From positions 71,441,216 through 71,505,215 of the forward strand of contig NC_088171.1 of assembly GCF_028769735.1 (NCBI RefSeq): a stretch of 64,000 bases of DNA, written 5' to 3'. A model generated the notes under the pieces. It ran no database searches. It saw only the letters and a list, made by a program, of their open reading frames with translations, and was not told the origin of the DNA. Source of the stretch: Zonotrichia leucophrys gambelii (taxonomy: Eukaryota > Chordata > Aves > Passeriformes > Passerellidae). Shown here in pieces: positions 47,328 through 53,483 of this stretch. Position 1 is the first letter of the stretch; each line of letters starts with the position of its first letter. The translations under genes and the position numbers were made by a program.

Positions 47328-47537
47328 TGTTGCCGCCGCCAGGGGCATGGCGTCCCGGGTCGAGGACAGCTCGGTGGCAGCGCCCCTGCCACACGGACCA
47401 AAGCCCACGCAGACTCCAATGTGAAATGACGGTGAAATGGCCTTTATTAACAGCTAGCCAGGGTAAAAGGGAAGCGGTTTCGCCTGAGCGCGACATCACG
47501 TTATGAGCGTGACATCTTGTGATATCTTGAGCCCACA
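47328..47537 (-). mobile_element. 3' LTR of the provirus (210 bp)
   Basis: On the minus strand it runs TGTGGGCTCAAG to GGCGGCAACA. AATAAA is at 47443-47448 (minus). It aligns with 53241-53483 but is about 33 bp shorter, and the missing part is the one that holds the TATA-like box in the 5' LTR. By eye the aligned remainder is roughly 80-85% identical, high divergence for the two LTRs of one provirus. Confidence 0.88.
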
Positions 47538-47552
47538 TTTCCCCCTCCTTTT
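47538..47552 (-). promoter_or_regulatory. Polypurine tract (plus-strand primer site)
   Basis: The minus strand reads AAAAGGAGGGGGAAA directly next to the 3' LTR's TG terminus, exactly where the retroviral plus-strand DNA primer must lie. This confirms the polarity of the element. Confidence 0.87.
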
Positions 47553-48797
47553 ATGACCAGCTAAAACATAGAAAATGCTAAGGTTAAAACTGACAAGTGG
47601 GAAACGTGTAACTGGTAAAAATGTACTGAAACTGAACAATGCAACATAACCGTAACAAACTTGTCTTAACTGTAAGTATTTCACAAGCAAAATGTTAACT
47701 ATTCTTAACTGGTTGTTAAAGAACAACACTAAAACATCTTTTTAACACTTGTTTAAACTGTAAGGTCCAAAGTCAATGCCAGGGGCCTAATAAGATGGAA
47801 TCAAAGGCGACAAGTCATGGGGACTGTATGAACCATGACTCAAAACATTTTTGCAGGACTTCTTCCTCAGCTTTTTGGCACTTTTGTAGAGGCTTCTTCC
47901 TGTTGATGCTCAGGAAATCAATCAGGTAACACACACACAAGTGATAAAACAGTTGATCATTCCGTTCAAGTAGAGTCAGAACTTGGCCAGAGTTCAAACT
48001 CTACTTGTTGGATATTCCTTAAAACAAGACTTTTCTTTTAAAAACAACAATTATGAACATGCAATCAAACCATTACACAATTGAATTCTTCCAAAACTTT
48101 GAACCATGATTGAAAACATTTCTGTTGAACCTCTCCCCCAGTCTTTCTCTGTGCCAGCATCTCTTCCCGTTCGGCCATGGAATTTCTCACAACCCTGGTG
48201 CGGTCTGCTGCTGGATTGCTCAATGACTAGTCATGGCCTTCATGGAGCGGGGTTTACAGGTTGCGGGGGTGTCTAAAGATTCAGTCCTGCAAAATAAACT
48301 TGACAAGTTTTATTAGTTTTGCCCTGAAGGTCTGGTTTGGCCCACTTTACTAGGGAGTAATAGCAGAACAACAATCTCTAAGCTGTCTTGTACAGATATT
48401 ACAATGCAGGGTGTTAAAGGGTTTATTTGATATCCTCTGCATTCTTGAAGTGCTAAAAAAAAGTCTCAGATGAGATACTCAGCCATATTTCTGCTCCTTT
48501 TCTATCAAAACAAGGAAAACTATTTGGTAGACGGTACACCAATCAAGCCAGGTTGGGCACAGAAAATAACGATTTTCTTCTATACATGCTCTTCTTGCAA
48601 ACATCCAAAGCCGTGGGTTCTCTCTCTGAAACACTCTTGATACATATTGTCCTATACATTACAAATACATATTATTATAATGATATATACAACTGTTTCC
48701 AGTAAATCTCTCGTGCTCAGACACCTCTAGATATGCCTGGACTGCAAAATTCAAGCCTGGCTCCAAATCTAAGTCATTTGGTATATTTAGTTCAGAT
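47553..48797 (-). mobile_element. 3' internal sequence of the provirus (unassigned)
   Basis: AT-rich sequence lies between the captured host segment and the polypurine tract. Only short minus-strand frames remain (for example 47997-47815 and 47729-47496). I do not recognise an env domain with confidence. It is best read as decayed env or 3' non-coding retroviral sequence. Its boundary with host-derived sequence is uncertain and was drawn at the right copy of a 17-nt direct repeat. Confidence 0.5.
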
Positions 48798-48814
48798 ATT
48801 TGATATCCTCTGCA
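48425..48814. repeat. 17-nt direct repeat pair near the host-virus 3' junction
   Basis: atttgatatcctctgca occurs at 48425-48441 and again at 48798-48814. The second copy marks the change from AT-rich provirus sequence to GC-rich sequence that runs into the KATNB1 copy. It could be the microhomology of a template switch, or a later internal duplication. Confidence 0.7.
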
Positions 48815-49453
48815 GCCCTGGGTGCCAGCAGGGATGGCTGAGAAGCCAAGAGAAAGTCTCTTGGTTCAGGTCCTTGAGATGCACCAGCACAGTGGCACAG
48901 TGTCCTTGCCCATGTCAGATGAAGCCAAAGGGGCTGGTCCCCCACAGCAGTTGAAGTCCTTTCTGTACGGAAAGGGCATCACCCCACAGCAGGCGTTTGT
49001 GGGGCGGTGCCTGCAGTCCTCAGCAGCTGCACAGCGAGAGCAGGGCCCCGACCCACAGGGCCAGGCAACAAGAACCGACAGCACAAGCGGGAAGGAGGGG
49101 TGACAGCAGGCTCAGAGCCCTCCTGCAGGGACAGGCCAGCACACAGAGCAGCCCAGAGCTGGATGCTGAGATGAAGAGCTGAAATGAAGCAGCTTCCCTA
49201 CAGGGCTCTATGGAGCCCTCCAGCCACCAGGGCCCCTCACACAGCACACACATCTCTCCACTGGGGTCCTCCATCCAGCCCCTAAGGCACTAGGGCTGGC
49301 TGGGTGACCAGCCAGGCAGATTGCACTTCCCTGCCATGCTGGAGAGGGGCAGGGGAAAAGGACATACACACTGAGAGAGCTGAAATCCAGCCAGACCACG
49401 AACAGGGGAAGCTTGGCCACCTGTGTTTGTACATGAGGAGGTGGTGGCTGTTG
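48815..49453 (-). other. Probable KATNB1 3' UTR remnant
   Basis: GC-rich sequence continues downstream (minus strand) of the KATNB1 stop position at 49453-49451, with no poly(A) tract at its end near 48815. Assignment to KATNB1 3' UTR is inferred from continuity and base composition, not recognised directly. Reading frames here have no domain. Confidence 0.4.
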
Positions 49454-50148
49454 GTCCAGGACAGCCATGAGGCGCAGCAGTTCCCGAAAGGCACTATCAT
49501 GGCTTTGGTTCTTCACAGCTGGGAGAAAGTCAGAGGCCTTCAGGCCAATGGGCTCATTCCTGGTTGCAGGAATCACTGATGGCTCTGTTCTGCTCAAAGA
49601 ATTTGAGGAGGCATTCAGTGGCCTCTGGACTGGATCAGGGAGCTCCTGCTTTGGTAGCGAGGTCTGGACATCCACAGCTTGGCTGGGCTTCACTGCTTCC
49701 TTTGCAGTTCCAGGCTCATCCTCAGAAGGGGCAGGGAAGGGCTCATTTTGAGGAGGAGTTCAACAGATTGCATTCTTGGGCTGGAAGATCTCTTTGTAAT
49801 CCTCTTGGTTCTGGATCTCAGCCTTTGATTCCTTCTCATCCGGGTCATCTTCACTGCTAGGACTGTGCCTCTCACTCTCCGAGTTGTGCTTCACTCTGCT
49901 CTGTGGCTTGCTGCAGCTCGTTGAGGGCCTGTCATAGATGCAGAGAAGGGAAGACCCTGTGGAGGTAGGTGGCACAAGAGGCTGGTCGTCTCTGATCAAC
50001 CCTTGAGGAACAGAATCTGACTTTGGGACTCTGCTGAGATCCACAACGAAGGAAGAGACTGTGCTTTGTGCAAAGGAAACTCCTATCAGCTGGTTGTTGC
50101 TGATAGACAGATCAGCTACTTTTCCCCAGTTCACCAAGACCACATGTG
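49454..50148 (-). pseudogene. KATNB1: KATNB1 (katanin p80) retrocopy, C-terminal half
   Basis: The minus strand encodes recognisable katanin p80 blocks without introns: VLVNWGKVADL after the WD40 propeller, then SESERHSPSSEDD, EIQNQEDYKEIFQPKN, PATRNEPIGLKASDFLPAVK and finally SAFRELLRLMAVLD at the end of the protein. Breaks seen: a TGA stop at 49762-49760 just after FQPKN; a jump near 49508 from FLPAVK straight to the last residues, losing about 150 codons (the con80 region that binds the p60 catalytic subunit); and CAA at 49453-49451 where the normal stop is expected. Known of the parent: p80 targets and regulates the microtubule-severing katanin p60 at centrosomes and spindle poles. This copy cannot supply that function. 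Confidence 0.93.
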
Positions 50149-50186
50149 GTTTGAGTGACAGGAAGTAGTTTTTTTTTGGGATATGC

Positions 50187-52937: not shown

Positions 52938-52954
52938 CCTCTCCTTCGCTGTTT

Positions 52955-53160
52955 TTTCGGTGCGAGACCTCCTCCTTCACCGGCCGAGGCATGAGCCTTC
53001 CTCCTTCACCGATTTTCGGTGCGAGACTTCCTCTCCCACCGCCCCGGCATGAGACTTCCTCCTTCATCAGTCCTAGGCACAAGCCTTCCTCTTTTACCGA
53101 TTCCCAGCACTAGATTTTCCCCCTTTGTCGGTCCCCCGGGAGCGTCCTCCCCGCCGGAGA
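52955..53160 (-). repeat. Tandem repeat in the proviral leader (29-30 bp, about 6-7 units)
   Basis: Units aligned on 'gagac/gagcc..tcctcc' begin near 52962, 52991, 53021, 53049, 53079 and 53109, with a weaker one near 53139. The spacing is 28-30 bp. They lie between the primer binding site and the gag start, where packaging and dimerisation signals normally sit. Confidence 0.8.
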
Positions 53161-53220
53161 CAGTCCCGCTGCTCCAGCTGCCGTTCCCTCGCCCGGGTGA
53201 TTCTCGCTTCCGGTATTGTT

Positions 53221-53238
53221 CGCAGGTTTTCGGCACCA
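53221..53238 (-). promoter_or_regulatory. Primer binding site of the provirus, tRNA-Phe type
   Basis: The minus strand reads TGGTGCCGAAAACCTGCG two bases after the 5' LTR. The first 11 bases and 14 of 18 overall agree with the complement of the tRNA-Phe 3' end (TGGTGCCGAAACCCGGGA). The mismatches lie in the distal part, as expected with age. Confidence 0.78.
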
Positions 53239-53240
53239 CT

Positions 53241-53483
53241 CGTTGCTGCCGCTAGGAGCGTGGCGTCCCGGGTCGAGGATGGCTCGGTGACAGCGCCCCT
53301 GCCACATGGACCAAAGCACACGCTGACACCAATGTGGTGGATGCTGAAATGGTGTTTATTAACGGCTAACTGGGGTAATTTATAACAGGGGGCAACGGTA
53401 GGGTAACGGTAAAAGGGGAGGGGTTTCGCCTGAGCGTGACATCGCGGTATGAGCGTGACATCTTGCGATATCTTGAGCCCACA
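53241..53483 (-). mobile_element. 5' LTR of the provirus (243 bp)
   Basis: On the minus strand it runs from TGTGGGCTCAAG to GGCAGCAACG (the terminal CA has become CG). It keeps a TATA-like TTATAAATT at 53386-53378 and AATAAA at 53360-53355 (minus). It pairs with the 3' LTR at 47328-47537. Confidence 0.9.
53378..53386 (-). promoter_or_regulatory. TATA-like box of the 5' LTR
   Basis: TTATAAATT on the minus strand lies upstream of AATAAA in the 5' LTR. The equivalent stretch is deleted in the 3' LTR. Confidence 0.55.

What the first reader, a model, noticed from the sequence alone, without database searches (positions are those of the whole stretch)
47328..53483. A provirus that captured a host KATNB1 mRNA
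Directly visible: two same-orientation LTRs, a 6-bp TTTGTC duplication outside them, a tRNA-Phe-type primer site next to the 5' LTR, a polypurine tract next to the 3' LTR, a gag-like start, and between them an intronless, sense-oriented copy of katanin p80. Known: bird CR1 machinery rarely makes processed pseudogenes, while LTR-element reverse transcriptase can template-switch onto host mRNAs (LTR-mediated retroposition) and acute retroviruses transduce host genes. Inference: a KATNB1 mRNA was co-packaged and joined between gag and the 3' viral end, giving a chimeric provirus that then integrated in the germ line. A cytoskeletal katanin subunit as retroviral cargo is, as far as I know, undescribed.
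Basis: partly seen in the sequence, partly recalled or inferred. Interest (0 to 1): 0.93.

Follow-up and report, generated by a model that had tools for sequence, protein, structure and literature searches.

The report
Songbird provirus carrying three host RNAs
In a songbird-like genome one old retrovirus insertion carries, between its own two ends, an intronless copy of the KATNB1 gene plus short pieces of two other host regions (one of them probably the gene PANK2), most likely because the viral copying enzyme jumped from one packaged RNA to the next, leaving a likely fossil of which host RNAs a virus particle once picked up.

Summary
Window 47328-53483 is a provirus on the minus strand: two LTRs, a perfect TTTGTC target duplication, a tRNA-Phe-type primer site, a polypurine tract and the start of gag. 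The genome it lies in was available. The parental KATNB1 (contig C13) maps exon by exon onto the copy with its introns removed. The copy begins upstream of the parental start codon and stops about 180 bases before the parental AATAAA, with no poly(A) and no target duplication of its own. Both KATNB1 ends join other host sequence, not virus: about 100-130 nt of a first exon that is probably PANK2 (contig C5), and 440 nt matching only one other place (contig C1). Viral homology resumes at 48338. Microhomologies at three joints point to reverse-transcriptase template switching. No sister copy of the chimera was found, so replication as a unit is unsupported. The LTR pair is more diverged than KATNB1 is from its parent, which leaves a stepwise origin open. 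An ERVK-type LTR and a deletion interrupt KATNB1. LTR-mediated retroposition is known, in birds too; three host sequences in one vertebrate provirus is the variant.

The parts
47322..47327 (.). target-site duplication TTTGTC, left copy
47328..47537 (-). 3' LTR
47538..47552 (-). polypurine tract
47553..48338 (-). viral 3' segment; 22 other places in the genome share a stretch whose match begins at 48338 (21) or 48337 (1)
48339..48778 (-). host-derived segment from contig C1 (92273502-92273945, minus strand), 92.5% identical over 438 ungapped columns
48779..48805 (-). 27 nt: 9 nt (TATCAAATA) that repeat a stretch of the C1 segment plus about 18-20 unassigned nt; 3' border of KATNB1
48806..50144 (-). 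KATNB1 retrocopy, 3' part (from 'VVLVNWGK..' into the 3'UTR), with an in-frame deletion joined at 49500-49503 (GCCA shared by both sides)
50145..51266 (+). ERVK-type LTR in opposite orientation, probably a later insertion
51269..51350 (+). primer site TGGTGCCCGAACAGGGAC (51269-51286) and 64 nt of probable ERVK leader; the rest of that provirus and about 140 KATNB1 codons are missing
51351..52037 (-). KATNB1 retrocopy, 5' part: 305 nt upstream of the start codon and the first four exons; ATG changed to ATT
52038..52062 (-). 25 nt not firmly assigned (weak match to the end of the C5 exon)
52063..52166 (-). first-exon fragment of probable PANK2, sense orientation; firm ungapped match 52063-52133 to contig C5 at 69591133-69591203, the rest by a gapped alignment
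52167..52937 (-). gag start (matrix region)
53221..53238 (-). primer-binding site, tRNA-Phe type
53241..53483 (-). 5' LTR
53484..53489 (.). target-site duplication TTTGTC, right copy

Best explanation
This is a defective germ-line provirus of a class II (alpharetrovirus-like) bird ERV whose middle was replaced by sequence from three host regions (probable PANK2, KATNB1 and an unnamed C1 sequence), likely by reverse-transcriptase template switching inside a particle. Shown: the order 5'LTR-PBS-gag-C5 first exon-KATNB1-C1-viral 3' end-PPT-3'LTR; removal of KATNB1 introns; one outer 6-bp target duplication; absence of KATNB1 poly(A); short identities at three joints. Inferred: minus-strand synthesis began at the tRNA primer, copied the viral 3' end, moved to the C1 RNA, looped back on it, crossed to the KATNB1 3'UTR at the shared TGCAGAGGA, skipped about 480 nt of KATNB1 at GCCA, ran to the 5' end of KATNB1 mRNA, moved to the PANK2 exon, and returned to viral RNA at GGGGC in gag. 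Viral integrase would then have inserted the product by its LTR ends. Probably later an ERVK-type element entered the KATNB1 part, and a deletion removed most of it together with the neighbouring KATNB1 codons. The locus looks like a dead pseudogene.
For: Parental KATNB1 maps as 12 blocks with introns between them; the blocks adjoin in the copy except where the ERVK LTR interrupts. The copy's 5' end is at parental GTGAAGGGCC; its 3' end is at GCAGAGGA, about 180 nt before AATAAA. C5 exon: 85% over 71 nt, genome-wide E 3.7e-13; a softer alignment runs over about 140 nt with gaps of 1, 1 and 23; local score 87 against at most 34 in 500 block shuffles and 29 in the other held host DNA; pantothenate-kinase (Fumble) domains downstream. 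C1: 91% over 439 nt, E 1.5e-175, the only other match of that stretch; the 22 viral relatives start at 48338 or one base on. Relatives continue with different sequence beyond both viral borders. CpG-filtered divergence of the LTR pair (15 of 163) and of C1 copy/parent (26 of 428) does not differ (p 0.20). The two LTRs share a 3-nt gap absent from the 8 other LTRs aligned.
Against: The LTR pair is more diverged (15 of 163) than the KATNB1 UTRs are from their parent (30 of 824), Fisher p 0.006. An older provirus patched later would look like this too. In the LTR comparison the 5' LTR is nearer to four LTRs from elsewhere (distance 0.115-0.121) than to its own 3' LTR (0.139), the 3' LTR is nearest to a C32 LTR (0.115), and the tree does not unite the two with support. 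Junction identity is 0-2 nt at C1/virus and unresolved at PANK2/KATNB1. The 9-nt identity at KATNB1/C1 is 9 in the window's C1 copy but 7 against today's C1 sequence. The C1 sequence lies in no exon I could identify, so its RNA status is inferred.
Confidence: 0.82

Rival explanations
1. Stepwise build-up: the chimera arose over several replication cycles or particles (for example KATNB1 first, PANK2 and C1 pieces at other times), or some short host pieces were patched in at the DNA level after integration.
For: LTR pair more diverged than KATNB1 UTRs from parent; own LTRs not each other's nearest; the C1 piece is not an identified exon; the C5 and C1 pieces are short.
Against: No intermediate or sister copy among the matches; the C5 exon and KATNB1 lie in viral sense orientation and the host pieces border each other in a row; C1 and LTR clocks agree within error.
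Confidence: 0.14
2. LINE (CR1)-type processed pseudogene of KATNB1 inserted into an older provirus.
For: KATNB1 copy is intronless.
Against: No poly(A); the 3' end stops inside the 3'UTR before the poly(A) signal; the exact repeats of 12 or more bases in the element's interior include none that flank KATNB1 alone; both borders are other host sequences.
Confidence: 0.02
3. Classical oncogene-style transduction: a provirus upstream of KATNB1 was read through and spliced into it, then repackaged.
For: gag is upstream and KATNB1 in sense orientation.
Against: The copy contains 305 nt upstream of the start codon, with no AG splice acceptor at the parental border, and a C5 exon lies between gag and KATNB1.
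Confidence: 0.02

Closest known systems
LTR-mediated retroposition in animals (Tan et al. 2016, not held; known here from passages of PMC5408686 and PMC8854603)
   Same: Intronless host copy, LTRs at the flanks, template switching at short identities; reported in chicken and for DYNLRB1 on a parrot W chromosome
   Different: Three host segments from three contigs in one provirus, one of them from no exon I could identify
Bs1 retrotransposon of maize (passage of PMC5408686)
   Same: One LTR element involved in retrocopies of three cellular genes
   Different: Plant element; here a vertebrate ERV with a long mRNA copy reaching into both untranslated ends
Crocodilian CrocERV29/CrocERV31 (passages of PMC4299795, two of them from the abstract)
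   Same: Host mRNA (KIT ligand, nectin3) captured by an ERV
   Different: Those multiplied and kept open frames; this one is a single broken copy
Avian acute transforming viruses with two host genes (AEV, MH2, E26; recalled; one search gave only a listing, not opened)
   Same: Avian retrovirus carrying more than one host gene
   Different: No growth gene here and no sign of replication as a unit

Membership tests
LTR-mediated retrocopy | introns removed | tested here: met
LTR-mediated retrocopy | host copy lies between two LTRs with a target duplication outside them | tested here: met
LTR-mediated retrocopy | short identities at the template switches | tested here: met
   9 (7 against today's C1), 5 and 4 nt at three joints; 0-2 nt at C1/virus and unresolved at PANK2/KATNB1
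LTR-mediated retrocopy | no poly(A) and no target duplication of the copy itself | tested here: met
LTR-mediated retrocopy | the two LTRs date to the same event as the host copy | tested here: inconclusive
   LTR pair against C1 p 0.20, against KATNB1 UTRs p 0.006; LTR tree unresolved
LINE-type processed pseudogene | poly(A) tail at the 3' end | tested here: not met
   3' end about 180 nt before the parental AATAAA
Transducing retrovirus (replicating chimera) | sister proviruses with the same junctions | tested here: not met
   none among the matches (4; 24) besides the locus itself; one assembly only, counts are lower bounds
Class II alpharetrovirus-like ERV | matrix of Retro_M type in the element; capsid, protease and integrase in a relative | tested here: met
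   (above curated cut-offs; RNase H just below its cut-off, zinc knuckle below)
Class II alpharetrovirus-like ERV | reverse-transcriptase phylogeny | not tested
   no pol domain placed for this element; no tree made

The most novel reading that the evidence does not exclude
One virus particle in a bird's germ line packaged viral RNA together with KATNB1 mRNA, PANK2 mRNA and an unspliced or unannotated C1 transcript, and a single reverse-transcription reaction with about six template switches fused all four into one provirus: a fossil inventory of the host RNAs in one particle.
Probability: 0.58. Interest if true: 0.72.

Novelty: new variant of a known kind. Interest (0 to 1): 0.62.

Why it matters
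CR1, the main bird LINE, is generally unable to make retrocopies (passage of PMC8232201), so how birds duplicate genes through RNA is an open question. This locus points to an ERV doing it, with most switch points readable against parental sequence of the same genome. It suggests that particles of this ERV family packaged several unrelated host RNAs, a prediction that can be tested by looking for more chimeras in the same genome.

Tried and rejected
LINE insertion into an older provirus: rejected by the mapped borders. Genuine exons: rejected. The 18-nt repeat TATTTGATATCCTCTGCA at 48424 and 48797 first looked like a target duplication of a separate insertion; the C1 sequence runs on across the inner copy (with one 6-base gap there), so it is read as re-copying plus the KATNB1 microhomology. 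The gap between 'SGSLDT' and 'VVLVNW' first looked like a retrocopy feature; it coincides with the ERVK LTR and a deletion. Exon skipping for the in-frame KATNB1 gap: rejected, both ends lie inside exons. IMG/VR scans for gag and for the ERVK primer region: nothing. Protein search of the 5' ORF for sister chimeras: 9 hits, WD40 proteins or fragments. Paper search KATNB1 + retrocopy: 0 papers; one literature search was badly chosen. PDB search of the C5 exon: 0. Pfam scans on the upstream side of C1 found nothing above cut-off (one sub-threshold PreP_C match in 103).
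Full report
What was checked. The finding's element is real and lies on the minus strand. LTRs of 210 and 243 bases (47328-47537, 53241-53483) are flanked by TTTGTC on both sides. They align at 180 of 209 ungapped columns; one gap spans 34 columns. The primer site and polypurine tract sit where a provirus needs them. A gag ORF of 273 codons matches Retro_M and one protein of 3,410 candidates, an Agelaius phoeniceus gag-like protein.

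Host. KATNB1 protein matches are best to Molothrus ater (93% over 81% of the query) and, over 61%, Geospiza fortis (96%), so the genome is probably that of a nine-primaried songbird. The genome itself is unnamed (G000, 1.12 Gb). A window gene is RNF152 (Pfam RNF152_C, 1.9e-74).

KATNB1. A search of the whole genome with one copy stretch (150 aa) gave 4 matches: the window copy, two parental exons on C13, and one match of the LTR end on C65. The parental region gave 12 blocks covering the copy from 52037 to 48806, with introns between them in the parent. Substitutions over 11 aligned blocks: 115 of 2,012 columns, 75 of 1,839 outside CpG. The copy has lost its ATG (ATT) and carries a stop, a frame change and two gaps. 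One gap, about 480 nt, joins GCCA inside one exon to GCCA inside the last exon, so it is not splicing. The other gap holds an ERVK-type LTR in opposite orientation; homology to its relative on C65 begins at 50146, one base inside the terminal TG. The LTR has a primer site and a short leader but no other end.

5' side. Viral homology to two related proviruses on C32 ends at window 52167. The next 129 bases are neither recognisable virus nor KATNB1. A genome search with 52037-52360 gave 4 matches: itself, the two C32 proviruses, and C5:69591133-69591203. The C5 place is a GC-rich first exon reading MEPPRSCGDG...SVSRQRRDSVRKNRP followed by a GT donor. Fumble (pantothenate kinase) domains lie downstream and a CARD-domain match, by recall MAVS, upstream; that neighbourhood and the recalled PANK2 N-terminus make PANK2 the probable name. 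Controls: score 87; block shuffles reach 34 at most (0 of 500); other held host DNA reaches 29. Of the 11 mismatches in 71 columns, 3 remain among the 38 columns outside CpG. The last 25 bases before KATNB1 are only weakly like the exon end (20 of 34 bases including them, reached by 17 of 500 shuffles) and are left unassigned. The exon and the virus share GGGGC at their joint. KATNB1 begins at parental GTGAAGGGCC, 305 bases before its start codon in the copy, which would fit the 5' end of the mRNA (inferred; no transcript data).

3' side. KATNB1 leaves its parent after TGCAGAGGA, about 180 bases before AATAAA. A genome search with 48250-48815 gave 24 matches: itself, one at C1:92273502-92273945 (91% over 439 bases), and 22 viral ones that begin at 48338 (21) or one base later (1). 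Thus 48339-48778 comes from C1. The C1 DNA runs on across the copy, apart from small gaps. No Pfam domain above its curated cut-off was found in 20 kb that begin at the match and run to the upstream side, so the C1 transcript is unnamed. It may be an intron or an unannotated last exon. The C1-derived segment contains TGCAGAGGATATCAAATA (48424-48441) in its middle, and the same 18 bases span the KATNB1 border; today's C1 reads TGCAGAGTATATCAAATA there. The simplest reading is that the enzyme copied C1, returned to it for 9 bases, and crossed to KATNB1 at the shared TGCAGAGGA. About 20 bases there stay unexplained.

Relatives. One C32 provirus spans about 6.0 kb between its LTR matches; the other runs at least 5.8 kb from its 5' LTR to the end of its 3' match. 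Both show gag matrix similarity (tblastn). In the first, capsid, protease and integrase domains pass their cut-offs and RNase H falls just short; the second was not scanned with Pfam. The window element keeps only the start of gag and the last 0.8 kb before the 3' LTR. The LTR search gave 24 matches, 2 of them this provirus.

Age and clock. CpG-filtered differences: LTR pair 15 of 163, C1 copy/parent 26 of 428, KATNB1 UTRs 30 of 824. LTR against C1: p 0.20; KATNB1 UTR against C1: p 0.06; LTR against KATNB1 UTR: p 0.006. The last result speaks against a single age unless the parental UTRs are conserved or LTRs mutate faster. In addition the two LTRs are not each other's nearest among 10 aligned, although they share a 3-nt gap that the other 8 lack. 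This is the main weakness of the one-event reading. With recalled songbird rates of 2-3.3e-9 per site and year the C1 and LTR values correspond to roughly 10-25 million years; this is rough.

Literature. LTR-mediated retroposition with template switching at microsimilarities, and its presence in chicken, comes from passages of PMC5408686. A parrot DYNLRB1 case comes from a passage of PMC8854603. CR1 being generally unable to make retrocopies comes from a passage of PMC8232201. ERV capture of KIT ligand and nectin3 comes from passages of PMC4299795. Tan et al. 2016 is not held. No paper in the held library joins KATNB1 and retrocopy. Searches (20 of 67 papers listed; 20 of 114; 3 of 3; 9 of 9; 20 of 24; 12 of 21) showed no bird provirus with several host transcripts, judged from titles and abstract starts only.

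Verdict. A real, old, dead chimeric provirus, best explained by reverse-transcriptase template switching across viral and three host RNAs. The kind is known; the number of host partners and the readable joints make it a notable variant.

Noticed in passing
window 50145-51350: ERVK-type LTR with primer site and short leader in opposite orientation inside the KATNB1 copy; its other end and about 400 bases of KATNB1 are missing.
   Followed up: partly
window 12897-13508 (+): RNF152 gene (Pfam RNF152_C); the other long ORFs outside the element were not tested.
   Followed up: yes
window 52941-53134: Imperfect tandem repeats of about 30 and 58 bases in the viral leader between primer site and gag.
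   Followed up: no
window 47829-47875 and 48100-48146: A 47-base repeat (77% alike) in the viral 3' segment.
   Followed up: no
window 52038-52062: Short palindrome CCAGGCTG...CAGCCTGG at the PANK2/KATNB1 joint, unexplained.
   Followed up: partly
window 48779-48798: About 20 bases (around TCTGAACTAAATATACC) at the KATNB1/C1 joint with no source found.
   Followed up: partly
LTR matches on contig C32: 9 of the 22 other LTR matches lie on the 75.9-Mb contig C32; two of them are the ends of one related provirus.
   Followed up: no
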